Source: Phenylobacterium haematophilum (GTDB lineage: Bacteria; Pseudomonadota; Alphaproteobacteria; Caulobacterales; Caulobacteraceae). From it: a DNA stretch of 64,000 nt. The DNA is taken from contig NZ_JACIDK010000002.1 in assembly GCF_014196295.1 (NCBI RefSeq), forward strand, positions 62,001 to 126,000. Reading direction: 5' to 3'. Below are positions 28,000 to 44,827 of the stretch, piece after piece (the stretch's first letter is position 1; every line of letters begins with the position of its first letter). Under the pieces are notes generated by a model. It saw nothing but the letters and a program-made list of their open reading frames with translations, ran no database searches and was not told the origin of the DNA. Position numbers and translations under genes: made by a program.

Positions 28000-28129
28000 A
28001 AGCTACTGTTAGGCAAAGACTAATCTAGCCAACAGGCTTCGCCAGACTTACCCATTGTAACCGTGGATTGGCCTCCAACTGCTTCCGTGGTGCTTCCGCG
28101 GAAGCAGGGCCAGACTGCGGAGAACGCCG

Positions 28130-29473
28130 ATGAGCAAGCTGACGAAGCGCGTCGTGGACGCTGCCGAGACCCGTGACGGGGAATACATCATCTGGGACGA
28201 TGAGTTGCCCGGCTTCGGCCTGCGTGTCTTCCCGTCCGGCAAGCGCAGCTACATGATCCAGTACCGCGCCCTGGGTCGAACGCGGCGCTATACGATTGGG
28301 CAGCACGGCGTTTGGGCTCCCGAAACCGCCCGCCGCGAGGCCAAGGTTCAGCTCGGACGTGTCGCCAAGGGCGACAACCCCTCCGAGGAGCGCCTGCTCA
28401 ACCACAAGGCCATCACGGTCAAGGAACTCTGCGAACTCTACGTCAAAGACCTGAACGCCGGTCTGATCATGGGCAAAGGCGGACGACCGAAGAAGCAGAC
28501 CACCATCACGACCGACAGCGGCCGTGTGCTGCGCCACATCGTGCCGCTGCTCGGCCAACGTAGGGTGCAGGACCTGACCCGGGCCTGCATCATTGCGGTG
28601 ATGAAGGACATCATCGCCGGCAAGACCCGCGGCATGTTCAAGACCTCGAGGCTGCGCGGAAAGTCGGTGGTCAAGGGCGGCCCCGGCACCGCGCGACGCA
28701 CCATCGGCCTGCTCGGCGGCATCCTTACTTACGCCGTCAACCTCGGCATCATCGAGCGCAACCCCGCGCACGGCATCCAGAAGCCCAAGGGCAACGTCCG
28801 CGAGCGGCGACTGTCAGAAGCTGAATACCGAACCCTCGGCGGGATGCTCGCCGAGGCGGCGCGCGACGAGGACAATGCGATCGCCGTCGAGATCATCCGT
28901 CAACTCGCGCTGACCGGCTGCCGCCGCAGCGAGATCGTCAAGCTCAAGTGGGCCGAAGTGGACTTCGACGGCAGTTGCCTGCGCCTCGTCGACAGCAAGG
29001 AGGGCGCCTCTGTTCGGCCCATCGGCCTATCCGTCGTCGAGCGGCTCGAACGCCGCCGACGGTCGAAGGCCGGCAGCTATGTCTTCCCCGGCCGCAACGT
29101 CGAGCAATCCTACGGGTACTTCCAGAACCGTTGGGACCGGATTTTCAAGGGCTCGCCCCTGGCCGGCGTGACGCCGCATGTGCTCCGCCACAGCTTCGCC
29201 AGCATCGCCAACGATCTGGGCTTCACCGAAGTGACGATTGCGGCGCTGATCGGCCACGCCAAGGGCTCGATCACCGGGCGCTACATCCATACGCTCGATA
29301 CCGCGCTCATCATGGCTGCGGATAATATCTCAGGCTATATCGAGGGCCTGCTGAATGGCGCACAGTTCAAGCAGAACAGCTACGCCCTCGACCGCGCGTC
29401 CCGGAAGGCGTCTCTGACGCGGTTCCTGTCGAAGGCCGCCGGGGATGGCGAAGACCTACCGCTCGCAGCTTGA
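28130..29473 (+). CDS. int: Tyrosine recombinase/integrase with DUF4102 arm-binding domain
   Basis: The 447-residue integrase has an N-terminal DUF4102 (Arm-DNA-bind_3) domain (LTKRVVDAAE, DDELPGFGLRVFPSG), a central SAM-like core-binding region and a C-terminal catalytic domain. Catalytic residues are visible: Arg in ALTGCRRSEIVKLKW, His-X-X-Arg in PHVLRHSFAS, His in LIGHAKGS, and the nucleophile Tyr in TGRYIHT. It lies 180 bases from a split tRNA gene and should drive insertion and excision of the element there. Length and motifs are complete, so it is likely active. Confidence 0.95.
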   Translation: MSKLTKRVVDAAETRDGEYIIWDDELPGFGLRVFPSGKRSYMIQYRALGRTRRYTIGQHGVWAPETARREAKVQLGRVAKGDNPSEERLLNHKAITVKELCELYVKDLNAGLIMGKGGRPKKQTTITTDSGRVLRHIVPLLGQRRVQDLTRACIIAVMKDIIAGKTRGMFKTSRLRGKSVVKGGPGTARRTIGLLGGILTYAVNLGIIERNPAHGIQKPKGNVRERRLSEAEYRTLGGMLAEAARDEDNAIAVEIIRQLALTGCRRSEIVKLKWAEVDFDGSCLRLVDSKEGASVRPIGLSVVERLERRRRSKAGSYVFPGRNVEQSYGYFQNRWDRIFKGSPLAGVTPHVLRHSFASIANDLGFTEVTIAALIGHAKGSITGRYIHTLDTALIMAADNISGYIEGLLNGAQFKQNSYALDRASRKASLTRFLSKAAGDGEDLPLAA

Positions 29474-29505
29474 CCGTTCCCCCACAAAACCTTGTCGGAG
29501 AGGCA

Positions 29506-29709
29506 ATGATGACGCATATTGAGGACATGGCGACGACCGCGAAAAAGAAGATTCGAGCGCGCCGCTCCGCCCCGGCCCAGAAGGCGTTCGTCTATCGGGG
29601 GATCAAGATTCCCCCAGCCAATCTCCGCCGCTCGCCACTTGCGCAAGCCATCCTCGACGATTTGCGAAAAGTGTCGGAGCAGTCGCGTGGCGAACCCGCC
29701 CAGGCGTAG
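29506..29709 (+). CDS. Small basic protein preceding the TIR-like gene
   Basis: This 67-residue protein has a lysine/arginine-rich N-terminus (TAKKKIRARRSAP) and a helical C-terminus (SPLAQAILDDLRKVSEQSRG). The ATG at 29506 follows GGAGAGG. Its last 23 bases overlap the start of the next gene in another frame, so the two are translationally coupled. I do not recognise the family; an antitoxin-like or partner role for the following protein is possible because of the tight overlap. Confidence 0.65.
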   Translation: MMTHIEDMATTAKKKIRARRSAPAQKAFVYRGIKIPPANLRRSPLAQAILDDLRKVSEQSRGEPAQA

Positions 29710-30331
29710 CCTGCCCGCGTCCAAGTCGGTCTTTATCAATTGTCCGTTCGATGAAGAGTTCAGGCCCATCCTGCGCGCGATGGTCTTCGCCATCATCGCT
29801 GCCGGCTACCATCCGCGCACCGCGCTGGACGCGACAGACGGCGCTGAAATCCGGGTCGGTAAGATCGCCACGCTGATCGGCGAGTGCGACTGGGGCATCC
29901 ACGACCTGTCACGGGTCGAAGTCGATGACGGCGGCGTGCCGAGATTCAATATGCCCATGGAACTCGGGATTCATCTCGGGGCCCGGCTGCTGGGCGAAAG
30001 GCGCCACCGGCGCAAGCGGGCTCTGATCCTCGATGCGGAGCGCCATCGCTACGACCGGGCGCTCTCCGATATCAGCGGCCAAGACATCGAGTCTCATGGC
30101 AATGATCCGGACGGTGCGATCCGCTGTGTTCGAAACTGGCTGTCCGAACATCGGCCGCGAACCGCTGAGCCGCTACCGGGCGCCGTTGCGCTGCAGGCCG
30201 ACTTTCGCCAGTTTCAGGCCGAGGTCGGGCCACTGATCGCTCAGCGTCGCCTCGATCCCGACGATCTGACCCACAGCGATTATCTGTTTCTTGTGCGAGG
30301 GTGGCTTCAGGTCAGGGCTGCGCAATCGTGA
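29687..30331 (+). CDS. TIR-like / nucleotide-binding Rossmann-type protein
   Basis: The real protein has 214 residues from a GTG at 29687 that overlaps the upstream small gene; a longer frame from 29519 is a shadow. It begins SKSVFINCPFDEEFRPIL and continues with EIRVGKIATLIGECDWGIHD, a C-x-x-x-IHDLSR block, FNMPMELGI and a late RALILDAERHRY. This layout matches a widespread uncharacterised family that resembles TIR-like or nucleoside deoxyribosyltransferase-like folds. A nucleotide-directed effector is a reasonable guess, not a demonstrated function. Confidence 0.72.
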   Translation: MANPPRRSLPASKSVFINCPFDEEFRPILRAMVFAIIAAGYHPRTALDATDGAEIRVGKIATLIGECDWGIHDLSRVEVDDGGVPRFNMPMELGIHLGARLLGERRHRRKRALILDAERHRYDRALSDISGQDIESHGNDPDGAIRCVRNWLSEHRPRTAEPLPGAVALQADFRQFQAEVGPLIAQRRLDPDDLTHSDYLFLVRGWLQVRAAQS

Positions 30332-30453
30332 AAGAGCCAGTTGGTCGGCCATTGAAGCCACCGGCAAAGATATTGCTGGAATATTGCTTCTGGCGACGGT
30401 GCGGCACTCGCTGACAACACCACGCGGCAAGCCCTGCCGGCTTGATCGAGATA

Positions 30454-30471
30454 TTAGATGAAGGTATCTAA
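30454..30471. promoter_or_regulatory. TetR-type palindrome before the isomerase gene
   Basis: TTAGAT and ATCTAA are perfect 6-base arms separated by six bases, ending seven bases before the ATG at 30478. The site is AT-rich compared with its surroundings. Spacing fits a TetR- or similar dimeric repressor. No such regulator gene is present in the window. Confidence 0.45.
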
Positions 30472-30477
30472 AACCCG

Positions 30478-31116
30478 ATGCCCGCGACGCACCCGCTTGC
30501 CAGCTTCGACTTCTACTTCGGGCTTGGCAGCCGCTATTCCTATCTCGCGGTCACCCAGCTCAAAATGCTCTCCGCGGCTGACGTCGCTTTGAACTGGTGT
30601 CCGATCTACAGCCCCGATCTTATTCGACGCGTCGGCCCCGATCCGTTCGCCCCGACGGCGCAACGGGGCCAGTATTCCTGGGCTTACCGAGCCGAGGACG
30701 CCGCACGTTGGGCTCGACACTACGGCGTGCCTTACCGCGACCCCGGGGAGGCGAAGGTCGACTGGCGCCAGATCGCCATGTGGGCGGTGGCGGCGAAACT
30801 TCTGGGCCGCGCACCTGAGTTTTCATCATGGGCGTTGGAGCGCACGTTCGTCTTTGGGGAACCGCCTGGGACAGTCGAGGACCTTTCACGGGGCGCTCTC
30901 GTCGCCGGTCTTGAGCCGTCATCAATTCTGGCGATGATCTCGTCAGGCGAGATCGACGCGTACCACGAGTCGTTGATCGAACAGGCTCACGGCCAAGGCG
31001 CATTCGGCGTTCCTACCCTCGTCGCTGAGGATGGGACGCTATTTTGGGGTCAAGATCGGCTGCCGCTGATATACGATTTTCTCAAAGCTCGCCGGGACGA
31101 CGGCGCCAAGCCGTAA
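30478..31116 (+). CDS. DsbA-fold 2-hydroxychromene-2-carboxylate isomerase family protein
   Basis: The 212-residue protein has the glutathione-dependent HCCA isomerase pattern: FDFYFGLGSRYSYLAVTQL at the N-terminus (Ser near 17 in place of the DsbA CxxC), a helical middle domain, and FGVPTLVAEDGTLFWGQDRL at the C-terminus, which is the conserved cis-Pro and DNA of the fold. HCCA isomerases work in naphthalene-type ring degradation, but many relatives are generic glutathione-dependent isomerases. No ring-degradation genes are near. Confidence 0.82.
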   Translation: MPATHPLASFDFYFGLGSRYSYLAVTQLKMLSAADVALNWCPIYSPDLIRRVGPDPFAPTAQRGQYSWAYRAEDAARWARHYGVPYRDPGEAKVDWRQIAMWAVAAKLLGRAPEFSSWALERTFVFGEPPGTVEDLSRGALVAGLEPSSILAMISSGEIDAYHESLIEQAHGQGAFGVPTLVAEDGTLFWGQDRLPLIYDFLKARRDDGAKP

Positions 31117-31233
31117 CGCTGGATCTGACCTGGGCCTGTCGCTGCGACCGAAGTGACGGTCAGGTTTTCCGCCGGGTCGCCAGGGACAATCGCGCCCTCC
31201 CCGGCTACAGATTGTCTACAAAGGGGGGCGACT

Positions 31234-31644
31234 ATGGTCATCATCATGGTTCACTGGCTGATCAAGAAGGGCTTCAGCCATGAGGAAAAGTTCAAGGAAA
31301 TTTGGAAGCAGATGACGATCGAGCCCAATACCGGGCTTTATCGGGAAATGCTGACCACAGTGGCGCTCGACAGCGACCCCAAGTTCAATACGTTCAGCCT
31401 GACCGACCAAGCCTACACGACCTACATCAACATCGGGGTCTGGAAGGATCTCGACAGCTTCGATGCGGCGGTCGGCAAGTATATCATGGCGCCGGAGAAG
31501 CGAGCCCCGATCGCCAGACCTGATACCGAGATGAACGCTGTCTACTTGCAGGACTTCGAGTTCAAGCTGCGCGAGCGCGTGATCCTCACGAAGGTGCTCG
31601 ACAGGAAGGGCGCCCTTGAGTTTCCGGAACCTGATCTCTCGTAG
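31234..31644 (+). CDS. Hypothetical protein, possible dimeric alpha/beta-barrel, 136 residues
   Basis: The ATG at 31234 follows AAGGGGG, which decides the start. The protein opens with a hydrophobic strand and histidine (MVIIMVHWLIKKGFSHEEKF), then alternates helices and strands in a way suggestive of a ferredoxin-like, ABM-type barrel. I do not recognise a specific family. It lies between the isomerase and the four-gene defence-like module, on the same strand. Confidence 0.65.
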   Translation: MVIIMVHWLIKKGFSHEEKFKEIWKQMTIEPNTGLYREMLTTVALDSDPKFNTFSLTDQAYTTYINIGVWKDLDSFDAAVGKYIMAPEKRAPIARPDTEMNAVYLQDFEFKLRERVILTKVLDRKGALEFPEPDLS

Positions 31645-31743
31645 AGACGCCGGTTTCGCCCCGCGCGGACGCAGCGAAGGAACAAAATTCAGCGCCGCCC
31701 GCACATCGGGCCGCTCATGTTGGCCTAGTAGAAGTGTCACCAC

Positions 31744-31761
31744 GCGGCCAGGAGCCGTGAT
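31744..31761 (+). promoter_or_regulatory. Module-specific upstream box, copy 1
   Basis: GCGGCCAGGAGCCGTGAT here matches the copy at 33835-33852 at 16 of 18 positions. Both copies are preceded by a TGGCC...AGTA segment (31721 and 33797). This copy ends 14 bases before the first GHKL gene, directly before its ribosome binding site. It may be part of a promoter or operator used by the module. Confidence 0.45.
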
Positions 31762-31775
31762 CAAAGGAGGATGAC

Positions 31776-33728
31776 ATGACCACTACCGACCTGAATGCCA
31801 CCAGCGACCGCCTGCTTACCGAAGTGGAGCGTCAGCAGAAGTACCTCGACCGCCTGCCGGAAAACTACGCCTTCCCGCTCTTCAACGCGGCGCAGGCGCT
31901 CGAATCCCAGCGCCGCAGCGGCTATCGCAACACTGCCGCCGCAGCCCGCGAGATCGTCGACAACGCGATGGAAGCCGGAGCGACACGCATTGATGTGTGC
32001 TTCGAGCGGCCGAAGCAGCTCAAGGCCTATCAGCGCGCGGATTCCGTCAGCGCGATCGCGTTCATCGACAACGGGTCGGGCATGATCCCAAAAATGGCGC
32101 AGTACGCGCTGTCCTGGGGCGCCGGCACGCATTTCGACGAACCCGATTTCATCGGGAAGTTCGGCTTCGGCCTGCCCAACGCCTCCATCAACCAGACGCG
32201 TCTCGTCGAAGTTTACACCAAGGTCGCGGGCGCGCCGGTGGTTACGAAGGCGTGGCTGGACGCCCGTGATGTCAAGGATCACGGGCTGCAGGAGATCCCT
32301 ACGCCGGTCGAGGCCCAACTGCCGGAATTCGTCCAGACCTACCTCGACAAGAAGGGGCTCTCCTTCGAGCACGGCACTGTCGTCGTCTGGGTGGAGCCTG
32401 ATCGAATCTCCTATCGGACGCCCGCGCTGATGCGGGAGCACCTGGTCGACGACTTCGGCGTCACCTACCGCTACCTGCTCGACAAGGCCGAACTCTACGT
32501 CGAAGGCTCGAAGATCGAGCCGGTCGATCCGCTCTTCCTGACCAAGGGCGCCCGTTACTATCTCGACGAAGCCAAGGGCGGCGCCAAGATGCAGCGCGAC
32601 TGGAATATTCCCGTCAAGTACGCGCGAAACGAGGAGGGCGTTCTGGCCCTGACGAAGGTCGAGGACATCGCCGAACTCGACCCTGAGGATCCCAATCTCG
32701 AAGCCGCTGGCGCGATCTACATCCGCGTCAGCCGGTTCCCGTACGGTTTCGCCGAGTTCACCAAGGGCAAGGCCGAGACCGACAGCCACCGTCGCTTCGA
32801 AATCCGCAAGACTCGCCGCGGCATGTCGTTCGTACGGGCCGGGCGCGAAATCGAAACGGTCGACGTGTTCCCCAAATCGATCCGGGATCAGGCCAAGGGG
32901 CTCGGCGACTGGCCGTTGCTGCAGTCCTATGCTTATCACTGGGGCGTCGAAGTCCGCTTCGATCCGACGCTGGATGAAATCTTCGGCATCACCAACGACA
33001 AGCAGACGGTGCGCCCGATCGAGGACCTTTGGCGGTTGCTCACGCTCGAGGGTGTCGACAAGCAACTCGGCCAGGAACAGACCTACCAGCGCAACATGCG
33101 CAGCGAGGAGCGGCGCAAGAAGAATGCCGCTGAGGCCGCCAAGAGCGCGGAACCGACGGTTGCTGAAACGGCCGCCGCCAAGGCGGACTCGATGACCGGT
33201 CAGAAGCCCCGCGTGACGGATCGCGCCAAGGGCAAGGTACGCGATGAGCTGGAACAGCAGGCTAAGGATCAGGCCAAGGTCAACAAGACCTCGATCGACA
33301 GCGCTCGCAAGGCGCTGGAGGACCAGGCCAAGCAGCGTCCGTACGTCATCGACTTCTACGACGAGCCCAAAGGGCCGTTCTACAAGCCCGAATGGCAGAC
33401 CGGCGGCCAGGTGGCTGTTCTGATCAACCGCGAGCACGCCTTCTTCCAGGCGCTGTATGGCCCCCTGCTGAAGTTCGCCCAAGGAAACCAGGCCAAGCAG
33501 GCCCTCGACGTCCTTCTGATCACGCTGGCCCGCGCCGAACTGGTGATCGAAGATGAGACCTGCGCGGCCTGGTATGAAACCCAGCGGGAGCAGGCCTGGA
33601 GCCCCTTCCTCGCCAACGCCTACAAGATGATGCAGCAGGCGACCGCGCCGGTGGACGAAGAAACCGCCGAGGGGGATGACGAAGACGACAACCAGGCTGA
33701 CGAGGGCGCGGAACAAGCCGCCGCCTAA
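31776..33728 (+). CDS. GHKL (Hsp90/MutL/MORC-type) ATPase, first of a four-gene module
   Basis: The 650-residue protein has an N-terminal Bergerat-fold ATP site: E59-I-V-D62-N63 (N box), FIDNGSGM at 97-103 and GKFGFGLPNAS at 127-137. The middle resembles a MutL/MORC transducer domain. The C-terminal third (about 440-650) is highly charged, with a Lys/Ala/Glu-rich coiled-coil-like stretch and an acidic DEETAEGDDEDD tail. GHKL ATPases of this type act as ATP-gated clamps in DNA handling and in several phage defence systems. The start follows AAAGGAGG. It is followed by a sigma-like gene and a second GHKL ATPase. Confidence 0.88.
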   Translation: MTTTDLNATSDRLLTEVERQQKYLDRLPENYAFPLFNAAQALESQRRSGYRNTAAAAREIVDNAMEAGATRIDVCFERPKQLKAYQRADSVSAIAFIDNGSGMIPKMAQYALSWGAGTHFDEPDFIGKFGFGLPNASINQTRLVEVYTKVAGAPVVTKAWLDARDVKDHGLQEIPTPVEAQLPEFVQTYLDKKGLSFEHGTVVVWVEPDRISYRTPALMREHLVDDFGVTYRYLLDKAELYVEGSKIEPVDPLFLTKGARYYLDEAKGGAKMQRDWNIPVKYARNEEGVLALTKVEDIAELDPEDPNLEAAGAIYIRVSRFPYGFAEFTKGKAETDSHRRFEIRKTRRGMSFVRAGREIETVDVFPKSIRDQAKGLGDWPLLQSYAYHWGVEVRFDPTLDEIFGITNDKQTVRPIEDLWRLLTLEGVDKQLGQEQTYQRNMRSEERRKKNAAEAAKSAEPTVAETAAAKADSMTGQKPRVTDRAKGKVRDELEQQAKDQAKVNKTSIDSARKALEDQAKQRPYVIDFYDEPKGPFYKPEWQTGGQVAVLINREHAFFQALYGPLLKFAQGNQAKQALDVLLITLARAELVIEDETCAAWYETQREQAWSPFLANAYKMMQQATAPVDEETAEGDDEDDNQADEGAEQAAA

Positions 33729-33834
33729 GTTGTCCGGGGGCGGGGACCTGGCCAACGTCCTCGCCCTCTAGCCTGCGGCGTGCGGGCGCGCTATCGTGGC
33801 CATAGTAAGCGTACAGCTCGAGACCAGTGTAGGT

Positions 33835-33852
33835 GCGGCCAAGAGCCGTCAT
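33835..33852 (+). promoter_or_regulatory. Module-specific upstream box, copy 2
   Basis: GCGGCCAAGAGCCGTCAT differs at two positions from the copy before the first GHKL gene. It lies 65 bases before the sigma-like gene, in a 189-base gap inside the module. The gap therefore probably carries its own promoter. The repeat is read directly; function is inferred. Confidence 0.45.
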
Positions 33853-33917
33853 GTCCCCGGACGCTGCAACGGCCTTCAAGCTGATTTTGAAGGCTACAGC
33901 AGCGAAAGGAGGACTCC

Positions 33918-34607
33918 GTGAGCAACGGTGTCTCAACTGTTACGCTGGATCACTTGATCCAGGCCGCCCTGACGGGCCAACCGTACAATCAGCAGCGGCT
34001 CGGCGCCGAAGCCGAGCGTTACTCCCTCCGGTTGTCGCGGGCCAAGGCGCCCGACCTCCCCGACGATCTGCACGACGAAGTGTGCCTGCAGGCCTTCGTC
34101 GAGTTGCTGAAACTCGGCGCCGGCGCGCTGACTAAGCACAGTGGAAGGATTTTGTTTCGCCGAGCCGTGCTCGCCGCGATCCGCTCGGTCCGCGCAAGTT
34201 ACGCGCCGCCCGGCGAGCGCACCCGCACGCCTAGACGGGAGAACGTCGCCACGACGTCGCGGGCCGCGAAGCTTCCTGCGCCCCCCAAGGTCGCCGCCGA
34301 GCATATCGGACACATTGCCAGCCCGCAGGAAATCGAGAGCAACAGCTTCACTGAAGGCGACTTCGCTTTCATCGATTTCGATCGGTTCCGTGATCTCCGG
34401 CAAGAGGCGGAGTTGCAGCGTGTTGAGGATCGCATCGAAGCGGACGCCGTTCTCAAACGCGCCGCTCCAGAAGTCGCCCGTGGTCTTCGCCTCGTTCACC
34501 TCAGCGACGAGACGATCGAAGAGGCAGCCGTAAAAGTGGGGCTCAGTCGTTTCGTTCTCAAGCGGCGAATGGACGCTTTCTGCTCGGATTTGCAGGCGGC
34601 CGCTTGA
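33918..34607 (+). CDS. Sigma-70-like helix-turn-helix protein of the module
   Basis: The 229-residue protein has an N-terminal helical part resembling sigma region 2 (ERYSLRLSRAK, LHDEVCLQAFVELLKLG), a linker, and a C-terminal region like sigma region 4 (RLVHLSDETIEEAAVKVG, SRFVLKRRMDAF). It is longer and more diverged than ECF sigma factors, and a non-transcriptional role is possible. GAAAGGAGG precedes the GTG start. Only three bases separate it from the second GHKL gene. Confidence 0.62.
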   Translation: MSNGVSTVTLDHLIQAALTGQPYNQQRLGAEAERYSLRLSRAKAPDLPDDLHDEVCLQAFVELLKLGAGALTKHSGRILFRRAVLAAIRSVRASYAPPGERTRTPRRENVATTSRAAKLPAPPKVAAEHIGHIASPQEIESNSFTEGDFAFIDFDRFRDLRQEAELQRVEDRIEADAVLKRAAPEVARGLRLVHLSDETIEEAAVKVGLSRFVLKRRMDAFCSDLQAAA

Positions 34608-34610
34608 CCA

Positions 34611-36323
34611 ATGTCCGAGCTGAGCCAGTCGGCGCGGGAACCGGACTTTGGTCCGGTTCTAGACGCGCAACGTGCATACGCCGCCGAACGCGCTAAGCGT
34701 TCTCGCTTCGGCCTCATGGTGCCCGAGGCCTTCGTGCGCGGTATCAGGGATATCGGCTACCGGAGCAACGGCGACGCCATCGCCGAACTGATCGACAACG
34801 CGCTGCAAGCTTATGCCGACCGTGTCGACGTCCTGTTCGGTTACGAAGGCACGACATCGAGCAAGAAACCGATGCAGTTGGCAGTCGTCGACAACGGGCA
34901 CGGCATGGAAGCGGACATGATCCGTATGGCGGTGATGTGGGGCGGCACACACCGCGAAAATGATCGTCGGGGGCTTGGCCGCTACGGTTACGGCCTTCCT
35001 TGCTCGTCAGTCAGCCTTGGTCGGCGGTTTACGGTGATCTCCCGAATCTCTGACGGCGCCTTCCGCAGCGTTACGCTCGACCTCGATGCAATCACAGCCG
35101 GCGAATACACCGATGCGTCCGGCGACATCGTGGTGCCCGAGCCCACGTCCGGGGAACTCCCGGGATTCGTCCGCCAGCACATCGAGGAGGCCTATCCCCA
35201 CGGATTTCGATCAGGGACCATCATTCTGATCGAGAAATTGGACAGGCTTGAATGGGCGACCACGCAGGGCCTCCGCGACAACCTTTGCCGCCAGTTTGGG
35301 GTTACTTATCACAAGCTTCGAGGCGAGGCCGCGCTGTTCGTGGATGGTGTCTATGTCGAGCCGATAGATCCGCTTTTCCTGACCCCAGGATTTCACCTGC
35401 ATGACATCGACGACGACCGGTCACAGCCGTTCGACCCCGTTCGCATTGAAATCCGTGACCCGGAGGCTGGTGCCTATCTTGGGGCAGTAACGCTGCGCTA
35501 CGCTTGGCTCCCGCCCAGTTTTGGCTCGATCGACAAGGGCCGAGACGCGGTCGGCCTCAACGCCAATGGCCGGTTCTCGATCTTGAAGGACTTCCATGGG
35601 CTGATCTTCAGCCGAAATGGACGGCTAATCGACGTCCAGACCCGCACTCCGTGGACGAGCTTCATCAACAACGACCGCTACATCAAGGTTGAGGTGGAGT
35701 TCTCGGCTACCCTGGACGAAGCCTTCGGCGTCACCACCTCGAAGCAGCAAGTCACCGTGTCTCCATTTATCTGGGATCGCCTGCGCGAGGCGGGCCTTCC
35801 AAAGGCGATCGAGCAACTGCGCAACAAAGTGAAAGAGGCCAAAGCCGAACGCCGGTTGGAAGCGCTAACGCCGACCGCCGGCGAACAGCGCCTCTCCGAG
35901 AAGGCCATGAGCATCGCTGGCGCGATAGGGTTGGCCGGGGGCGGCCAAAGGCAATGGGATTTCGGGTTACGGGTGTCGCCCTACAGCCTGAAATTCGAGC
36001 ACTCGGCGGGCCGACCGTTCTTCCGAGTTGATCGCGAGGATGGCGCTCGGACCTTACACATGAATACCGCGCATCGCTTCTACGAGGAAATCTACGACGG
36101 CCCCGTCTCCACGCCGGAACTTCGGTCGGCTTTGGAGGTGCTGCTTTTCTCGCTTGGTGACGTCATGCTTGAGAGTCCAGATGCCGACCGCCCGCGGGCA
36201 TCCGCTCAGGTGGACTCCTGGTCGCGGCGTCTCGACGCCGCACTTGCGATGCTCGCGGAGCACCTCAGCGTCGGTGACGGGGTCGACGTCGGAGCCGCGG
36301 CTTGGTCGGACGAACCCAACTAG
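34611..36323 (+). CDS. Second GHKL (Hsp90/MutL/MORC-type) ATPase of the module
   Basis: The 570-residue protein has the same Bergerat spacing as the first ATPase: E59-L-I-D62-N63, VVDNGHGM at 93-99 and GLGRYGYGLPCSS at 121-133. The transducer region aligns in style with the first protein (both have FGVTY, FVDG or YVEG, EPIDPLFLTPG/EPVDPLFLTKG segments). It lacks the long charged tail of the first. The two are probably paralogues that may form a heteromer. It follows the sigma-like gene with no separate ribosome binding site, suggesting translational coupling. Confidence 0.87.
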   Translation: MSELSQSAREPDFGPVLDAQRAYAAERAKRSRFGLMVPEAFVRGIRDIGYRSNGDAIAELIDNALQAYADRVDVLFGYEGTTSSKKPMQLAVVDNGHGMEADMIRMAVMWGGTHRENDRRGLGRYGYGLPCSSVSLGRRFTVISRISDGAFRSVTLDLDAITAGEYTDASGDIVVPEPTSGELPGFVRQHIEEAYPHGFRSGTIILIEKLDRLEWATTQGLRDNLCRQFGVTYHKLRGEAALFVDGVYVEPIDPLFLTPGFHLHDIDDDRSQPFDPVRIEIRDPEAGAYLGAVTLRYAWLPPSFGSIDKGRDAVGLNANGRFSILKDFHGLIFSRNGRLIDVQTRTPWTSFINNDRYIKVEVEFSATLDEAFGVTTSKQQVTVSPFIWDRLREAGLPKAIEQLRNKVKEAKAERRLEALTPTAGEQRLSEKAMSIAGAIGLAGGGQRQWDFGLRVSPYSLKFEHSAGRPFFRVDREDGARTLHMNTAHRFYEEIYDGPVSTPELRSALEVLLFSLGDVMLESPDADRPRASAQVDSWSRRLDAALAMLAEHLSVGDGVDVGAAAWSDEPN

Positions 36324-36392
36324 CCGAGGGCGTCCCCTTTGGCTAAGATAGGGTGGGCCGCTTCGTGCGGCCCTTTCGATTCTGGAGCGCGG

Positions 36393-38420
36393 GTGTCCAC
36401 TGACGAGAAGCTTTTTGGTCCAGGCCGTTTGCGAGCGTTTTCACCCTTCCTAGCGCCGGGTGAGCGCAAACAGCTTCACGACCTTCTCAACCCTGGGACG
36501 GCGCTTTCCACGAGCTTCGCCGACGAGTTGCGCACTTTGGCGCGGCGCTTCATAGACGACGGCGACAGCATCAAACTCCGCGCGGTCTGCCTCCTGGTCG
36601 CTGATCTTTGCGAGCAAGGCTGGGAAGTTGCCGTCGATGCCGACCGGATCACCTTCCAGCCGCCTGGGATTACCCGCACTGGCGAACAATCCGTCAATGA
36701 TATCAAGGCTCGCGTCCGCGCGGCACTGCAAAGTGCGCGGCTGCGCCAACTCCAGGAACCCTCCGTTCGTCAGTTCTTTGTCCGGGTTGAACGACGTTCG
36801 CTTCGTTCGGGTAAGCGCGCCTCGGTCATTGACCTCGTAGATGACGGAGCCTCGCTTGCAAAAGCGCTGAAAGCCATTGAAGGCCTCTCAGACGCAGAGC
36901 GGGAAGTTGCTCTCAAGGGGATCATTGATCCCGTGGTTGAGGTGGCCGAAGCCGGGGCGAAGTGCCCTGACACCGGCCTGCCGCTGATCGATATCTGGCG
37001 GTATTTCAGGCATACCTGGGCGCACGAATACCGGTCGATCCCCGGCCGGCAGATGATGGTATTGATCCGGAACGCTGCCCGGCCACTTCGCCCCGTCATC
37101 GGGATCGCCATGCTGGCCAGTCCCGTCATGCGACTGGCTGCCCGCGACCGCTGGATCGGCTGGCTAAGGGATGCGGCCCAGGAGCGCATCAGTACCGCGA
37201 CGTGGGATCCCGCGGACTTCGGCGCGTCTCTTATGCGCCGTATCGACGCATCGATCGCGGCGGTGCGCTGGGATGATCTCGCGAGCCCCGCCGAGATCGC
37301 CGACCCTGGTGAAACGGTGGCGCTGCGGCTCGAGCAGAAGGCTGCAGGGGCGGCGTTCGCCCGCGAGCAGCAACTCCGCGATTACTACGAAACTCACCGT
37401 GAATCGGACGGCCACATGCGCCCTCACCGAGGCGAGTTGAAGAGCGCGCAGCCAGACTCTGACTGGCGTGCTGCTTCAGAGGATTTGCTGTTCGTGCGCA
37501 AACGCGCCGAGAGCTTGGCGCAGTTGTTGTTCGCTAAAGGCATGTTGCGCGGCGCCGGTCTCGCCGACGAGCCAGCTGCCGGCCTCGAAAGGCTCTTTAC
37601 GACCCGAAGCGGCCAGCGGGCCCTCGACATAGCCTTGGCGGAGTTTCGGAAGGCCGGGCTCTCTAGTGAAGTCGCCGACGTCAGTATTTGCGGTGCGGTT
37701 CATCCGTACAATGAACTGCTGGGTGGGAAGCTCGTCGCGCTTTTGCTCACCTCCAACGAGGTGAGAAACGCCTACGCAAAGCGCTATAGCGGGCAAACGA
37801 GCGTTATCGCGTCGCAGATGGCAGGGCGAGCGATCTCGAAACCGGCCGATTTGAAGATCCTCACAACTACTAGCCTCTACGGGGTAGGGTCGAGCCAGTA
37901 CAACCGGCTTGTCCTTCGCGCCGAAGATCATCCCGGCCTCCAGACTGATATTAAATGGGGAGCAATCGGCAAAAGCCTGACGGGAGGGTTCGGCACGCTG
38001 CACCTCGGCGGCGAGACGGCTCAAGCATTGCGCAGCATGGCGATGTCTCGCCACGATGCGCGAAGGGTGAACAACCGCTTCGGCGAAGGAACGAGTCCGC
38101 GATTGAGGCAAATCCGCGAAGGCCTTGATGCCCTAGGACTGAAAAGCGACGCCATCCTTCATCACGCCACACCACGGATATTCTACGGCTGCGAGCTTAC
38201 CCCGGGTTCACGATCGACATTGCTCGACCTGAACGCGGGATCTGGAACCTATGCGTCGTGCAGCGATATCGGCGCAGCATGGCGTCGGCGATGGGTCATG
38301 AACCGTGTGCGTCGCGAAGAAACGTTGGAGGCGCTCGGTCGCCTCGGCCCTACTAGCGTAAGAGCGAGCTTGCACGCCGATGCGGACGGCCAATTTCTTC
38401 TCCCGATCGATCCTGTTTGA
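36393..38420 (+). CDS. DruA-like (DUF4338) protein ending the module
   Basis: From the GTG at 36393 (TGGAG upstream) the protein has 675 residues; a TTG 54 bases earlier is an alternative. Residues ~190-255 contain CPDTGLPLIDIWRYFRHTW, PGRQMMVLIRNAAR and RPVIGIAMLASPV, and ~435-505 contain HPYNELLGGKLVALLLTSNE and LYGVGSSQYNRL. These are, from memory, the hallmark segments of DUF4338, the DruA component of Druantia. Canonical Druantia systems include the large DruE helicase, which is absent. Here the partner genes are two GHKL ATPases and a sigma-like protein. Confidence 0.78.
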   Translation: MSTDEKLFGPGRLRAFSPFLAPGERKQLHDLLNPGTALSTSFADELRTLARRFIDDGDSIKLRAVCLLVADLCEQGWEVAVDADRITFQPPGITRTGEQSVNDIKARVRAALQSARLRQLQEPSVRQFFVRVERRSLRSGKRASVIDLVDDGASLAKALKAIEGLSDAEREVALKGIIDPVVEVAEAGAKCPDTGLPLIDIWRYFRHTWAHEYRSIPGRQMMVLIRNAARPLRPVIGIAMLASPVMRLAARDRWIGWLRDAAQERISTATWDPADFGASLMRRIDASIAAVRWDDLASPAEIADPGETVALRLEQKAAGAAFAREQQLRDYYETHRESDGHMRPHRGELKSAQPDSDWRAASEDLLFVRKRAESLAQLLFAKGMLRGAGLADEPAAGLERLFTTRSGQRALDIALAEFRKAGLSSEVADVSICGAVHPYNELLGGKLVALLLTSNEVRNAYAKRYSGQTSVIASQMAGRAISKPADLKILTTTSLYGVGSSQYNRLVLRAEDHPGLQTDIKWGAIGKSLTGGFGTLHLGGETAQALRSMAMSRHDARRVNNRFGEGTSPRLRQIREGLDALGLKSDAILHHATPRIFYGCELTPGSRSTLLDLNAGSGTYASCSDIGAAWRRRWVMNRVRREETLEALGRLGPTSVRASLHADADGQFLLPIDPV

Positions 38421-38649
38421 AAGAATCCCGAGGGCAGAGAGATAGTATCGCGAGCATCCAAAATGAGGGGAAAGCCTTCCCCTGATGGCCAGCCCAAGTC
38501 TGGCCATACCCCTTCTGCGGGGGAACCCCCAGGCTGTGCAAAAACTCTATGGCCGTGCCGGCTGCATGGGACATCCTGCCCCAAAGCCGACTCTCGGAAT
38601 TACTGTTCGGGGTGGGTAGCCGACGTTACGTCATCTTGCCAATTGCAGG

Positions 38650-39966
38650 CTAACGCCCACTGCGCTCCCGCCTAACGTGGTCCAGCAGCCTTGCGATCCC
38701 CTCCGTAGCGAGCCGCGCACCATCTTCATTCGCGACCTCTGACGCGTACTTTGCCGCCAGCCGGGACGCCTCTCCGTCCTTCAGCAGACTAGCTATTGCG
38801 TGCGTGGCAGTGTCAGGGGTGAACCGCATGTGATCCAACCGCCGAGCTATGCCGAGGCGCTTCAAGCGTTCGGCATTATCGGCCTGGTCGCCAAGCATCG
38901 GACAGATCAGCTGCGGCTTACCTGCTCGCATCACCTGGGCCACTGTGCCGATGCCGCCGTGATGGACGATCGCTGCCGCGCGCGGAAAAACCATTGAGTG
39001 CGGTGCATAGCCAGCGATCGCGACATCATCGCTGCCGAGGTGAGCATGGGTGGAGACGGCATCTGAACCGACGAGTAGGACTGCTCGCATACCGAGGGTA
39101 CGAGCCGCCGTTGCCGCGGATTCGTAAAAGCTGCCGGCGGCATGCACTCCGAAACTGCCGAGGCTGAACACCAGCGGGGGTGCTCCCTCGTCGAGGAACT
39201 GCGCGAGATTCGACGGCAGGCCGCCAGCGCCACCGCTTTCGCTGTCGTAGAAGGTGAATCCCACGATCGCACTGTTTGGTGGCGCGTCTGGTGGAAGCGG
39301 GCCCAGCAGGGGTGAATAGGCGGCGGCGATCCAGTCTGCCCGAAGGGGACCGTCTAAGACCTCGTCTCCTGAGGGCGTAGGCACACCGGCGCGACGCCGT
39401 AGCTCGAGGATCGCCTTAGTCTGCCGGCGGGACTGTGCTCGGCCCAGATCAAGGACGAATTTGGCGGCCCGTGCGCCAAAGGTGCGACGGAAAGCCGGGA
39501 ACCAGGGCAGCTCCATAAGGTGCGGCGGCTGCTCCGAAGAGAAAAATGCGATAGGCGAAAGCAACAGGCTGACGACCGGCAATCGCCGTTTCTCAGCGGC
39601 CACGCGAGCGACGATTGAGAAGCTGGACGCCACGACCAGGTCGGCGTCTCGCATTGCGTCTAAGAGGTCAGCGTAGCTGCGCTCGGCATAGGGCGTCACC
39701 GAATTCTTTATGAGAAAAGTGGTGCTCGAACGCATGACATGGCGGGTGACATCCCCTTCCGTCAGCCCAGTGTCCGCCAGGAGTTCTTCCGGCGACGGCG
39801 TGACGGCATGGAACGAGAGCCCCTCCGCCTCGACTTTCGCCCGATATCCGCTGCTCGCCGCGATGAGAGGCTCGAAACCATGTGCCTTCAGCTGCTGCGC
39901 AAGCGCGATGAAGGGATGCAGATCTCCCAAAGATCCGACGCTGGTCAGGACGATCTTTGCAGGCAT
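38650..39966 (-). CDS. GT1-type glycosyltransferase
   Basis: The 438-residue protein has the GT-B layout of UDP/dTDP-sugar glycosyltransferases acting on lipids or natural products: an N-terminal IVLTSVGSLGDLHPFIALAQ acceptor domain and a C-terminal donor-binding block HHGGIGTVAQVMRAGKPQL followed by DQADNAERL. Relatives include rhamnosyltransferase RhlB and macrolide glycosyltransferases. It converges on the DruA-like gene across a 229-base gap with no recognisable gene. It has no biosynthetic partner in view apart from the prenyltransferase beyond it. Confidence 0.88.
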   Translation of the reverse strand: MPAKIVLTSVGSLGDLHPFIALAQQLKAHGFEPLIAASSGYRAKVEAEGLSFHAVTPSPEELLADTGLTEGDVTRHVMRSSTTFLIKNSVTPYAERSYADLLDAMRDADLVVASSFSIVARVAAEKRRLPVVSLLLSPIAFFSSEQPPHLMELPWFPAFRRTFGARAAKFVLDLGRAQSRRQTKAILELRRRAGVPTPSGDEVLDGPLRADWIAAAYSPLLGPLPPDAPPNSAIVGFTFYDSESGGAGGLPSNLAQFLDEGAPPLVFSLGSFGVHAAGSFYESAATAARTLGMRAVLLVGSDAVSTHAHLGSDDVAIAGYAPHSMVFPRAAAIVHHGGIGTVAQVMRAGKPQLICPMLGDQADNAERLKRLGIARRLDHMRFTPDTATHAIASLLKDGEASRLAAKYASEVANEDGARLATEGIARLLDHVRRERSGR

Positions 39967-40529
39967 CTCACATCCGCCGACATCTGACGGAGGTTTTCTG
40001 CACCGAATGGCTCCGCCAGGAAAGTGCTCGCCAACTGGTTCACACGGTCGCGATCTTGACCTTCCAAGCGCCAGCAGTGCGCCAGCAGTGCGGGACCGAC
40101 GAACGTCGCCTATGAGTCGAAACCGGTCTTAAGGTCCCTGCCCAGGACCGGACGTCGCCGAACCGGTCGGCCAATGTCGGCTTTCTGGACGCTAGCTAAT
40201 GTCGCTTCGCGACCCATGTCGGACATTGGCGGCGTCCGCTTGTGGGTGAGGAGTACCTAGTCGGCGACTACGACAGTTGGGTGCAGATCAAGGACGTGAA
40301 GACCCGCCTTCCTGACCAGACCAGCAGAGAGGGGATTTCCGCTCCCGCGTCGGAGCCTTCAATAGCGGTGCGCGCGAGGGATACTTGGCTGGCCCAGAAC
40401 GCGCAACGAACAGCCTGGCGAGATTGGGAACCTTAATCTGGCTCTTCGGAGCGCTCGTCCGCTCCTATAATGAAACTGCTTTGCGCTAGCGGTAGGAGCT
40501 GGTCGCACCCTAATCGGATTGCCCGCCCC
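39967..40529. other. Intergenic region without a convincing gene
   Basis: This region between the divergent glycosyltransferase and ubiA genes holds an 11-base tandem duplication (GCGCCAGCAGT at 40068 and 40079) and an 8-base inverted repeat (CCAATGTC at 40171, GACATTGG at 40222). A 64-codon frame at 40242-40436 has no recognisable motif or ribosome binding site. It may be a junction between independently acquired segments. Confidence 0.5.
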
Positions 40530-41498: not shown

Positions 41499-41981
41499 TC
41501 AGCCTCGACCCTTATGGGTGCCATAGCTCTGCGTATCGAGCTCGACCATCTTCACCCAGGTTTTGAGCAACCGAGCATATTGCCGCGTTCCGATATGTGA
41601 ACCGGCATGGCTGCGGCTGGGGAATAGCCAGTCATTCGATAGCTTACTCCTCTCCGTCAGCCAGACTCGTAGGGCGTCACGCGTCGCTTCAGTGAGCTCG
41701 AATGGCACGGGGCGGCCAGTCTTTTGCTGGATGATCGTCGCCCTAGAATGGATGACGTCACCGCTCGCAACGTCACTCACCCGCAGTCGCACGAGATCGC
41801 AGCCGCGGAGTTCTGCATCAAGGGCGCAGTTGAACATGGCCAGGTCACGTGCGCGGCCGAGCTGCTTGAGTTGCTGGCGGATCGCCCAAATGTGCTTCGG
41901 CTTGAGTGGGGACTTCGCCCCTACGATGCGGCCGGCGTTCCAAGGCTTTCTCGGCAGACGGAATAGATCAGATTGAGTCAT
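41499..41981 (-). pseudogene. Tyrosine recombinase, C-terminally truncated
   Basis: The 160-residue frame begins TQSDLFRLPRKPWNAGRI and matches small XerD-like integrases common on proteobacterial plasmids (normally about 205-210 residues). It contains the first catalytic Arg region (LDAELRGCDLVRLRVSDV) but ends SYGTHKGRG and a stop exactly where the catalytic His-X-X-Arg, His and nucleophile Tyr should follow. The protein cannot be catalytically active. The break faces the 3' end of ubiA, suggesting a past rearrangement there. GGAG precedes the ATG. Confidence 0.8.
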
Positions 41982-42101
41982 GGGATCTCCTCGAAGAAGT
42001 CTCCCCCAGCCCTGGCTCTGAACGAGCGAGCCAGTGAAAATCACAAGCCCAAAATGGCCGTCCCGATGTCGATCTGGCGCTTCAAAGTGCAGGCGAAACA
42101 C

Positions 42102-43667: not shown

Positions 43668-43717
43668 CCGTGACGGGATGAGGAGTGGCGAGAGAGGCTC
43701 GCCGCGACCCGTCGCGG
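43668..43717 (+). ncRNA. Structured 5' leader of ardC (type A; possible radC RNA motif)
   Basis: An outer stem of ten pairs joins CCGTGACGGG (43668-43677) to CCCGTCGCGG (43708-43717). Inside, GGCGAG and CTCGCC (43687-43703) pair around the loop AGAGG. The outer helix ends just before the GGAGA ribosome binding site. The parB leader has the same loop and layout with different stem bases. Location before an antirestriction gene is reminiscent of the radC RNA motif, but this identity is from memory and untested. Confidence 0.65.
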
Positions 43718-43726
43718 AGACTTCCT

Positions 43727-44692
43727 ATGCGGCGCAACATCACCCGGCCCGATAGCGACCGTGCCGACCTTTACCAGGACATCACCGACAAGATTATCGC
43801 CGAGCTGGAGGCGGGCCGTGTGCCCTGGGTTCAGCCCTGGTCCGCCGCCCGCGCGCCGCTCGATATGCCGCACAACGCGTCGACCCGCTCGCGCTATTCG
43901 GGCATCAACATCGTTATTCTCTGGGACGCCGTCGTGTCGTACGGCTTTTCGACCAACGCCTTCCTAACCTTCCGTCAAGCGCTGGCGGCAGGCGGCAATG
44001 TCCGCAAGGGCGAGCGCGGCACGACTGTGGTCTACGCCAAGCCCTTCACCCCGGCCGAGGAGAAGCGGCGCGCCGCAGCCGAATGCCGCGAGGCCGGGCG
44101 CGTGCCCATGCTGAAGCGGTTCACCGTGTTTAACACCGATCAGTGTGAAGGGCTTCCGTCGGCGATCTGCACACCGGCCCCGCCAGTTACCGAAGGTCTG
44201 ATCCTTCCGGCGGCCGAGGCGCTCATCAGGGCCACGCGGGCTGATTTCCGTATAGGCGGGGATCAGGCTTTCTATGCACCAGGTTTCGACTACATCCAGG
44301 TGCCGCGGCCCGACGCCTATTTCGAGCCGGTGAACTGGCATCGCACCGCCTTTCATGAGCTGGGCCATTGGACGGGTCATCCGTTGCGTCTCGGCCGAGA
44401 TCAGAAAGGCCGGTTTGGGTCGACAGAATATGGACGCGAAGAACTGGTCGCGGAGATGGCCGGAGCCTTCGTCTGCGCCTCGCTTGGCATCGCGCCGACC
44501 GTCCGCCACGCAGACTACCTGGGATCATGGCTCGCCATCATCCGCGAAGACAAGCGCGCCATCGTGCGCGCCGCCAGCGCTGCCTCAAAGGCGGCGGATT
44601 TCATCCTGGGCTATCGCGAGCGCGCGGAGACTGAGGCCGTCGAGGCGAACACGGCGACAATAGAATCGGCTCTGAGACGGAGGGCGGCATGA
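43727..44692 (+). CDS. ardC: ArdC-like antirestriction protein with zincin domain
   Basis: The 321-residue protein has an N-terminal DUF1738/ArdC ssDNA-binding domain (DLYQDITDKIIAELEAG, VPWVQPW, YSGINIVILW) and a C-terminal metallopeptidase-like domain with FHELGHWTGH and EELVAEMAGAF supplying the two His and the Glu of a zinc site. ArdC-type proteins protect incoming single-stranded plasmid DNA from restriction. The start at 43727 agrees with family N-termini; the upstream extension overlaps the structured leader. Confidence 0.9.
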   Translation: MRRNITRPDSDRADLYQDITDKIIAELEAGRVPWVQPWSAARAPLDMPHNASTRSRYSGINIVILWDAVVSYGFSTNAFLTFRQALAAGGNVRKGERGTTVVYAKPFTPAEEKRRAAAECREAGRVPMLKRFTVFNTDQCEGLPSAICTPAPPVTEGLILPAAEALIRATRADFRIGGDQAFYAPGFDYIQVPRPDAYFEPVNWHRTAFHELGHWTGHPLRLGRDQKGRFGSTEYGREELVAEMAGAFVCASLGIAPTVRHADYLGSWLAIIREDKRAIVRAASAASKAADFILGYRERAETEAVEANTATIESALRRRAA

Positions 44693-44741
44693 ACCTGTTG
44701 ACCCCGAGCTGGAGGCCCGGCTTCGCCGATGGACAGGTCGT

Positions 44742-44761
44742 TTTAGATAGCACTGTCTAAA
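44742..44761. promoter_or_regulatory. Imperfect 20-bp palindrome before the NTF2-like gene
   Basis: TTTAGATAGCACTGTCTAAA has outer arms TTTAGA/TCTAAA and is symmetric apart from two base pairs. It sits 66 bases before the NTF2-like gene at 44828, in a 135-base gap. Size and sequence style fit a TetR-type operator. No TetR gene is in the window. Confidence 0.45.
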
Positions 44762-44827
44762 TCGCTAGACGTCTGCCGGTGATCGCGACAAAACGATTGC
44801 ACAGTAGGACGCGAAGAGGAGACCGGA

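What the first reader, a model, noticed from the sequence alone, without database searches (positions are those of the whole stretch)
31776..38420. Four-gene module: two GHKL ATPases, a sigma-like protein and a DruA-like protein, without a DruE helicase
Seen directly: four same-strand genes, with only three bases between the second and third, encode two Bergerat-fold ATPases, a sigma-factor-like helix-turn-helix protein and a DUF4338/DruA-like protein. Known: DruA belongs to Druantia systems, which also carry the large helicase DruE; GHKL ATPases occur in several defence systems. Inference: this is a distinct defence-like system in which two ATP-gated clamps replace DruE. I know of no described system with exactly this gene set. 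It lies in the cargo part of an integrated element, the usual place for defence genes.
Basis: partly seen in the sequence, partly recalled or inferred. Interest (0 to 1): 0.88.

Follow-up and report, generated by a model that had tools for sequence, protein, structure and literature searches.

The report
DruA-GHKL defence module with RNA leader
Four neighbouring bacterial genes form a defence-like module built on a DruA protein and its ATPase partner, with an add-on cassette that carries a sigma-factor-like gene behind a folded RNA, which suggests a self-controlled on-switch for an immune system.

Summary
The four genes are real and recur as a set in 13 other loci found here. They are two units. 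Core: a MORC-like GHKL ATPase directly upstream of long DruA (predicted GNAT fold); this pair stands in 68 of 83 loci and co-varies (r 0.93, n 66). Add-on: a second GHKL plus a sigma-like gene; these GHKLs form one clade in 14 of 14 sets, their DruA-side partners do not. "Clamps replace DruE" is not supported: of 44 pairs with full flanks, 26 have DruE, 12 an SNF2 helicase, 10 neither. The window's genome shows no DruE; seven other such loci lie in genomes without DruE1, so that state recurs. A promoter-like motif is shared by genes 1 and 2, which suggests autoregulation. Antiphage activity is untested. Searches found no paper that joins Druantia with GHKL, MORC or sigma factor.

The parts
31700..31729 (+). 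promoter-like motif (CGCAC-N-TGGCC-TAGT) upstream of gene 1
   Evidence: strict pattern: 7 matches in 89 sequences (both strands), all 7 upstream of gene 1 or 2 of such modules; 0-2 per simulated set; function inferred
31744..31757 (+). short hairpin GCGGCC..GAGCCG in the 5' leader of gene 1, like one hairpin of the leader of gene 2
   Evidence: seen by eye in the upstream regions
31776..33728 (+). gene A: accessory MORC/MutL-like GHKL ATPase (add-on cassette)
   Evidence: PF13589 8.7e-13; one clade of 14 of 14 with the upstream GHKLs of sigma-bearing sets (13 of 13); Bergerat residues in alignment A4
33779..33806 (+). weaker form of the promoter-like motif upstream of the RNA leader
   Evidence: matches only the loose, unspecific form of the pattern; side-by-side listing
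33811..33917 (+). structured RNA leader of gene B; a stem covers the Shine-Dalgarno stretch of gene B
   Evidence: covariance model R1, 132.1 bits, 2.4e-33 (the window row is in the model); pair counts on A10; no Rfam match there
33918..34607 (+). gene B: sigma-factor-like protein with two helical domains (GTG start)
   Evidence: AlphaFold2 model and Foldseek; present in 13 further loci
34611..36323 (+). gene C: core MORC/MutL-like GHKL ATPase, DruA partner
   Evidence: PF13589 2.4e-17; GHKL directly upstream of DruA in 68 of 83 loci
36339..38420 (+). gene D: long DruA, DUF4338, predicted GNAT fold (TTG start as listed; true start may lie further in)
   Evidence: PF14236 1.3e-33; PDLC00001 963 bits; model pLDDT 87, GNAT chains top the VIA-align list

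Best explanation
A mobile, Druantia-like defence module made of two units. (1) Core: MORC-like GHKL ATPase C plus long DruA D. Inferred: C closes an ATP-driven clamp on foreign or aberrant DNA and thereby switches on D, a GNAT-fold enzyme that modifies a cell or phage target; where a DruE or SNF2 helicase module is also present, the pair works with it. (2) Add-on control cassette: GHKL A, a structured RNA leader and sigma-like B. Inferred: B directs transcription from a dedicated promoter motif in front of A and of the leader (an autoregulatory loop), the leader keeps B's ribosome-binding site paired until a signal opens it, and A is the clamp that senses DNA and gates B. Shown: genes, pairings, clades, co-variation, conserved RNA structure, shared motif, GNAT-like and sigma-like models. 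Inferred: every functional step.
For: GHKL directly upstream of DruA in 68 of 83 loci. DruA and adjacent-GHKL distances correlate, r 0.93, n 66; upstream GHKL and sigma-like protein r 0.97, n 13, against 0.86-0.90 across the two units. Upstream GHKLs of sigma-bearing sets: one clade, 14 of 14; their DruA-side partners need 6 changes (13 of 13). Cassette present in L041 and absent in its close relative L038. Leader: sense-strand match directly upstream of the sigma gene in 13 of 13 sigma-bearing sources, and under E 0.1 in none of the other 85; it stays with the sigma gene where that gene sits inverted behind DruA (L012, L013); 10 of 27 pairs with two-sided changes, 87% of cells paired against 23-49% when slid; each of 13 folds alone to a long interrupted hairpin, z -1.8 to -4.0. 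RNA-model search of 366 + 367 genomes: 4 strong matches, all in such modules, one of them new (L135, G1040). Strict promoter motif only in front of gene 1 or 2, 7 of 7, 0-2 by simulation; a related pattern has one site per genome in 5 of 5 genomes, each at the place in front of gene 1. DruA: GNAT chains fill most of the top of the VIA list (best Z 8.8), and PMC10853773 (one passage) calls DUF4338 a GNAT domain. GHKLs: nearest solved relatives MORC2 (3e-16), then MutL.
Against: No experiment. Z 8.8 is just above what unrelated models reach, and plain Foldseek gave no PDB match under E 1 for DruA. DruA has an invariant GGK where GNATs have R-x-x-G-x-G (motif recalled). Gene B has no sigma Pfam match and weak Foldseek scores. 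The strict promoter motif stands before A in 6 and before B in 1 of nine alphaproteobacterial sets; the others were matched loosely or by eye; the loose pattern has 120 matches, mostly elsewhere; the two plasmid sets have another shared motif, and none was recognised before A in L059, L088, L110. Reversed, the 5-genome pattern has 0-3 matches per genome. Antisense echoes of the leader reach 31.3 bits and outscore the true L013 (31.1) and L012 (23.0). One of five pair measures is not above shuffles (108 of 500), and the alignment was fitted to the model. Only 14 leaders are known, 12 of them from alphaproteobacteria.
Confidence: 0.5

Rival explanations
1. The window copy is a remnant: a Druantia-I-like island that lost its c2-DruD-DruE half and is decaying.
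For: 26 of 44 GHKL-DruA pairs with full flanks have DruE and 29 have c2; the window's genome shows neither.
Against: All four genes and the leader are intact; seven other loci without helicase in the flanks (L035, L057, L059, L061, L063, L075, L088; three phyla) lie in genomes without DruE1 and c2, though some are draft or metagenome assemblies; G1040, with the set on a 3.36-Mb contig, has no c2 (DruE not searched there).
Confidence: 0.22
2. One reading: two ATP-gated clamps do the work of the missing DruE helicase.
For: No DruE found in the window's genome; sets without DruE1 recur.
Against: GHKLs accompany a DruE or SNF2 helicase in 34 of 44 loci with full flanks; core sets with one GHKL also lack helicases (L057, L061, L063).
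Confidence: 0.08
3. The A-leader-B cassette is a CapK/CapS-like controller: a GHKL kinase senses DNA damage and releases a transcription factor that turns on the neighbouring immune genes.
For: CapK (GHKL kinase activated by ssDNA) and CapS sit upstream of immune operons (PMC13373217, abstract and passages); A-B is a GHKL plus a regulator upstream of an immune-like pair and joins different partners.
Against: CapK is HTH-STAS-GHKL of the anti-sigma kinase type; A matches only HATPase_c_3 in Pfam, and the profile of A and C relatives is nearest to MORC and MutL; B is sigma-like, without a STAS match.
Confidence: 0.2
4. DruA is a DNA-modifying GNAT, in the manner recalled for the phage Mu protein Mom, and the module marks self DNA.
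For: GNAT-like fold; the VIA list also holds nucleic-acid acetyltransferases (TmcA, NAT10, Z 5.4-6.0). DruE's helicase family also serves DISARM and Dpd (PMC12458937, start of abstract and passages), which modify DNA (recalled).
Against: No base-modifying partner genes seen; long DruA is also fused to or beside SspF/DndF-like proteins, where the other variable fused domains (one passage of PMC10853773) look to me like effectors.
Confidence: 0.15
5. The conserved stretch before gene B is a DNA operator or recombination site, not an RNA element.
For: Very high primary conservation among the closer relatives.
Against: Compensatory changes between distant rows; it ends at the start of gene B with the Shine-Dalgarno stretch in a stem; it keeps its orientation to the sigma gene when that gene is inverted.
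Confidence: 0.08

Closest known systems
Druantia type I (DruA-DruB-DruC-DruD-DruE)
   Same: DruA family protein (PDLC00001, PF14236); many relatives stand next to DruD1 and DruE1
   Different: GHKL directly upstream of long DruA in 68 of 83 loci; the window's GHKLs match neither DruB1 nor DruC1; no DruD in window 20001-50000 and no DruE; in relatives an unnamed ~970-aa protein (c2) stands where DruB/DruC would be, and the copies tested match neither
MORC / paraMORC GHKL ATPases of restriction systems (PMC2292703, abstract and passages)
   Same: GHKL plus S5-type ATPase, nearest to MORC2 and MutL; neighbours often SFII helicases
   Different: no methylase or nuclease match in the window's four genes; partner is a GNAT-like DruA; that paper's main text holds no 'sigma'
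MzaB of the MZA system
   Same: GHKL domain, 43 and 63 bits
   Different: far under the curated cut-off of 850
CapK/CapS (PMC13373217, abstract and passages)
   Same: GHKL plus transcription regulator upstream of immune genes
   Different: MORC-type GHKL, sigma-like protein, RNA leader; no STAS match
DndFGH / SspFGH systems with a DUF4338 GNAT domain on DndF (PMC10853773, one passage)
   Same: same long DruA domain, fused to or beside an SspF/DndF-like protein
   Different: there with SspG-like and DndH-like genes; 13 of the 15 loci without adjacent GHKL are of this kind, though two loci (L071, L076) have both

Membership tests
Druantia type I | DruA (DUF4338) | tested here: met
   PF14236 1.3e-33, PDLC00001 963 bits
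Druantia type I | DruE helicase | tested here: not met
   own genome: only a 24.8-bit match in a 525-aa frame on another contig
Druantia type I | DruB and DruC | tested here: not met
   genes A, B, C match no DruB/DruC model at E<=10; the P. putida DruB and DruC do match
Druantia type I | DruD | tested here: not met
   own DruD profile: none in window 20001-50000; rest of the genome not searched for it
Druantia type I | antiphage activity | not testable with these tools
   no experiment
MORC-like GHKL-S5 ATPase | Bergerat motifs and S5 lysine | tested here: met
   invariant D62, N63, D94, G96, G98, G126, G128, K378, Q379 in 35 rows; MORC2 3e-16; which letters are the motifs is recalled
MZA system | full-length MzaB | tested here: not met
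   42.6 and 62.9 bits, cut-off 850
Sigma-70 family | sigma domains by sequence | tested here: not met
   Pfam at E<=1: one unrelated match at 0.11; NCBIfam: SigF model at 0.041, far under its cut-off
Sigma-70 family | sigma-like folds | tested here: met
   the 50 Foldseek rows shown are by title sigma factors or initiation complexes; one at E<=0.001, whole-chain TM 0.2-0.3, single domain TM 0.63 to 3hug_K
Sigma-70 family | binds RNA polymerase and promoter | not testable with these tools
   no experiment
GNAT acyltransferases (DruA) | GNAT fold | tested here: met
   top VIA row a GNAT, Z 8.8, rmsd 3.2, 142 of 154 residues aligned; most of the first 36 rows GNATs; margin modest, Foldseek alone did not show it
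GNAT acyltransferases (DruA) | R/Q-x-x-G-x-G/A acyl-CoA loop | tested here: inconclusive
   invariant G463-K464-L465 at that place, not the textbook motif (motif recalled)
CapK/CapS controllers | STAS domain | tested here: not met
   no STAS match in genes A-D at E<=1
Any Rfam 15 family (leader) | match to a covariance model | tested here: not met
   window 28000-40000 at E<=5: one miRNA match elsewhere; L110, L088, L013, L059 at gathering: one tRNA elsewhere

The most novel reading that the evidence does not exclude
The GHKL-RNA leader-sigma cassette is a portable immune switch of a new kind: a MORC-type DNA clamp, a new riboregulator and a dedicated sigma factor that transcribes only its own module, plugged in front of different GHKL-DruA effector pairs, in which DruA is a GNAT-type effector that can work without any helicase.
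Probability: 0.28. Interest if true: 0.92.

Novelty: new variant of a known kind. Interest (0 to 1): 0.76.

Why it matters
How DruA works is, as far as I recall, unknown. A conserved ATPase partner in eight phyla, co-varying with it, plus a GNAT-like fold, turns that into testable questions. The cassette adds a structured leader RNA without an Rfam match and a candidate self-serving sigma factor tied to an immune-like module, a form of control for which my searches found no report beside Druantia.

Tried and rejected
DruE replaced by clamps: not borne out by neighbourhood counts. GHKLs as hidden DruB/DruC, or c2 as DruB/DruC: no model match. MZA membership: far under cut-off. Plain Foldseek of DruA against PDB: nothing under E 1; against viral models two giant-virus proteins. 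PDB sequence search with DruA or sigma-like profiles: best E 0.35 and 0.23. Leader in phages and plasmids (blastn) or viral contigs (exact pattern): none; as the divergent plasmid copies L012 and L013 were missed too, such searches are weak. Sigma-70 promoter scan of 31600-34700: none. A pseudoknot between the 5' end (CAGCU) and the apical loop (AGCUG): possible in the alphaproteobacterial rows but nearly invariant, with 4-pair alternatives in L059, L012, L013 and no clear form in L088 and L110; left open. Sigma-like profile in 385 genomes of the class: only the window's own. GHKL C in the same class draw: besides the window, G680 (beside a DruA) and three genomes whose GHKL has no DruA near.

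Biases and rows left out: the 80 loci are the best 80 of 143 relatives of an alignment built from GHKL-linked DruAs, so 68 of 83 is no population frequency. For the helicase count 52 of 83 loci had 8 kb on both sides, 44 of these with a GHKL. A2 holds 69 of the 72 length-filtered DruAs plus the window. GHKLs under 450 aa were left out of the first tree; six rows were added in the second. Seven of 13 leaders entered the pair count, since antisense echoes of the others would have entered. Of the ten loci with neither helicase, the window and eight others were searched genome-wide; L113 (viral contig) was not; SNF2 was not searched genome-wide. G796, G805 and G1024 carry the known L035, L039 and L037; only G1040 is new. 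Some phylum names come from metagenome bins.
Full report
OBSERVATION. The four ORFs are at the stated places, same strand, with 3 bases between genes 2 and 3. Genes A and C carry HATPase_c_3, gene D is DruA by Pfam and matches PADLOC DruA1 PDLC00001 with 963 bits. Gene B has no significant Pfam match; its AlphaFold2 model (mean pLDDT 80, pTM 0.44, two helical domains) finds, by title, sigma factors and RNA polymerase initiation complexes in the 50 Foldseek rows shown, one of them at E<=0.001, with low whole-chain TM. A relative in Roseivivax is annotated sigma-70 family.

RELATIVES. An alignment of six DruAs (A1) fetched 80 named loci from the genome collection (best 80 of 143 relatives) and two viral contigs. 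With profiles for the four proteins and clustering of neighbours, a GHKL gene stands directly upstream of DruA in 68 of 83 loci (80 + 2 + window). Of the other 15, 13 carry the FtsK/HerA-type neighbour and two (L042, L058) neither. The tree of these GHKLs names Pseudomonadota, Acidobacteriota, Actinomycetota, Myxococcota, Gemmatimonadota, Verrucomicrobiota, Bacteroidota and Thermodesulfobacteriota. The sigma-like gene is present in 11 of these 83, in two plasmid loci (L012, L013, where it lies inverted behind DruA) and in L135 found later: 14 sets in all, the window included, each with two GHKLs and DruA.

HELICASE. Representatives of the neighbour clusters: c3 is DruE1 (PDLC00013, 2070 bits), c4 DruD1 (518 bits), c8 an SNF2-type helicase, c9 NERD plus UvrD-like. 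Of 44 GHKL-DruA loci with at least 8 kb on both sides, 26 have DruE, 12 SNF2, 10 neither; of 10 four-gene sets among them 3 have DruE, 3 SNF2, 4 neither. Eight of the nine neither-loci other than the window were searched genome-wide: seven show no DruE1 at 1e-30 and no c2 at 1e-10; the eighth, L067, has both on contig C6 of its genome, which is probably the contig of the locus itself. L113 was not searched; SNF2 was not searched genome-wide; several of these genomes are drafts or metagenome bins. The plasmid record of L013 has neither. The own genome has no c2 and only a 24.8-bit DruE match of a kind that also rings in 12 of 14 control genomes. So the pair usually travels with a helicase module, and a state without DruE1 recurs. 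Short-DruA systems without an annotated ATP-binding gene in the operon exist: P. putida pKF715A has DruA-DruB-DruC-DruD-DruE; Nitrosococcus has short DruA, a 955-aa protein in the c2 place, a DruD-size protein and the DruE-like helicase. The c2 copies tested match neither DruB nor DruC.

TWO UNITS. In the GHKL tree all upstream GHKLs of sigma-bearing sets are one clade, 13 of 13 and 14 of 14 (support 100), whereas the DruA-side GHKLs of the same sets need 6 changes. The trees are quick ones with long branches; the root is not inferred, so gain and loss cannot be told apart. L038 lacks the A-B cassette that its sister L041 has. Distance matrices agree: DruA with adjacent GHKL r 0.93 (n 66; 0 of 2000 permutations as high) and 0.99 within 13 sets; upstream GHKL with sigma-like protein 0.97; across the units 0.86-0.90. 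Shared ancestry of whole loci raises all these values, and the permutations do not correct for it.

RNA LEADER. The gap between A and B holds a stretch conserved among eight alphaproteobacterial loci of at least six genera or families besides the window's, ending with AAAGGAGGAC and the start of gene B. Rfam: one miRNA match elsewhere in the window region at E<=5 and one tRNA elsewhere in four loci at gathering. A covariance model of eight rows finds it on the sense strand directly upstream of the sigma gene in all 13 sigma-bearing sources; the five rows not in the model score 23-45 bits. In the other 85 of 98 sources nothing is under E 0.1. Antisense echoes at the same places reach 31.3 bits, above the true L013 (31.1) and L012 (23.0), so score alone does not set those two apart; their place before the sigma gene does. 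On seven rows (A10, fitted to the model) 10 of 27 pairs have two-sided changes and 87.4% of cells pair against 22.9-48.8% when slid; at most one of 500 shuffles reaches four of the five measures, but 108 reach the fifth, further pair types. Each of 13 leaders folds alone to a long interrupted hairpin, z -1.8 to -4.0. In most rows the Shine-Dalgarno stretch pairs with a C-rich strand. Genome draws: 366 genomes of the order of G796 gave 3 strong matches (G796, G1024, G1040; at least 125 bits) and five genomes with matches of 23-25 bits; none of the five has module genes in the 3.1 kb around the match, nor the three that I fetched at 14 kb. 367 of the order of G805 gave G805 itself and one match of 26.6 bits, not followed up.

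PROMOTER MOTIF. The regions before A and before the leader share CGCAC, a spacer, TGGCC and TAGT. The strict pattern occurs 7 times in 89 sequences, always before gene A (6) or B (1) of such a module; ten simulated sets gave 0-2. The loose form has 120 matches, 10 of them labelled before A or B, so it is not specific; the window's site before the leader is of this loose kind. A related pattern has one site in each of five genomes, each at the place before gene A; read backwards it has 0-3 per genome. In L012 and L013 both genes are preceded by another shared motif (TTGCAC, later ATACT or similar, by eye); in L059, L088 and L110 I recognised none before A. This fits a sigma factor that serves its own module, but is inference.

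DRUA AND GHKL. The DruA model (pLDDT 87, pTM 0.87) had no PDB Foldseek match under E 1; VIA-align puts GNATs at the top, Z 8.8, the aligned range running over 193-621 with a helical part between. The tool notes that unrelated models often reach 7-8. This agrees with one passage of PMC10853773 that calls DUF4338 a GNAT domain. Residues invariant in 70 rows include C451, G452, Y457, G463, K464, L465 and F581-G584. The GHKL profile is nearest to MORC2 and MutL. Long DruA also occurs fused to or next to an SspF/DndF-like protein with SspG-like and DndH-like genes, mostly without GHKL, which suggests that DruA is a portable part joined to different ATP-driven machines.

LITERATURE. DUF4338 with GHKL, and Druantia with GHKL, MORC or sigma factor gave no paper; DUF4338 alone gave three; Druantia with acetyltransferase two, seen as a listing only; anti-phage with sigma factor and GHKL two, one of which, PMC13373217, I read in passages. 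MORC/paraMORC restriction operons are known (PMC2292703, abstract and passages). The YprA-family helicase paper PMC12458937 (passages) holds no 'GHKL'. The library holds open-licence papers only.

VERDICT. A real, recurrent module; a new variant around DruA with an ATPase partner that I found nowhere described, and an add-on cassette with a structured RNA leader. Antiphage function and every mechanistic step remain to be tested.

Noticed in passing
L102:9788-19624, L068:9803-19599, L014:8845-18674: Second branch of long DruA: fused to or beside SspF/DndF-like, SspG-like and DndH/HerA-like genes, mostly without GHKL (models run on L102 and one L068 protein).
   Followed up: partly
viral structure library: Two giant-virus proteins (Faunusvirus, Yasminevirus) match the DruA model at 3.8e-8 and 1e-7.
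   Followed up: no
L029, L030, L031: Related GHKLs without DruA form their own clade, each next to a ~545-aa gene and near a ~1130-aa gene: possibly another system.
   Followed up: no
L033:11997-15122 (cluster c2, 40 proteins in 40 loci): A ~970-aa family; copies tested have no Pfam (one) or PADLOC (three) match; it often stands before DruD-DruE or an SNF2 helicase.
   Followed up: partly
L116:3816-14565: Nitrosococcus plasmid: short DruA, c2-size protein, DruD-size protein, DruE-like helicase, no annotated ATP-binding gene in the operon.
   Followed up: no
window 29519-30331: 270-aa protein behind the integrase; by eye TIR-like or Rossmann-type, but no Pfam or PADLOC match.
   Followed up: no
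window 28130-29473, 41502-43564, 43685-49694: Tyrosine integrase, an integrase-like piece, a DDE transposase, ArdC and a Toprim protein: mobile-element surroundings; G+C drops from about 0.69 to 0.62 near 28 kb.
   Followed up: partly
window 55480-60718: ImuB-like polymerase (IMS) and a DnaE-type polymerase III alpha gene, a likely mutagenesis cassette.
   Followed up: no
L011, L051, L012: One-GHKL sets (L011, L051) and the two-GHKL plasmid set L012 are followed by DruE with no DruD or c2 called between (the inverted sigma gene lies between in L012).
   Followed up: no
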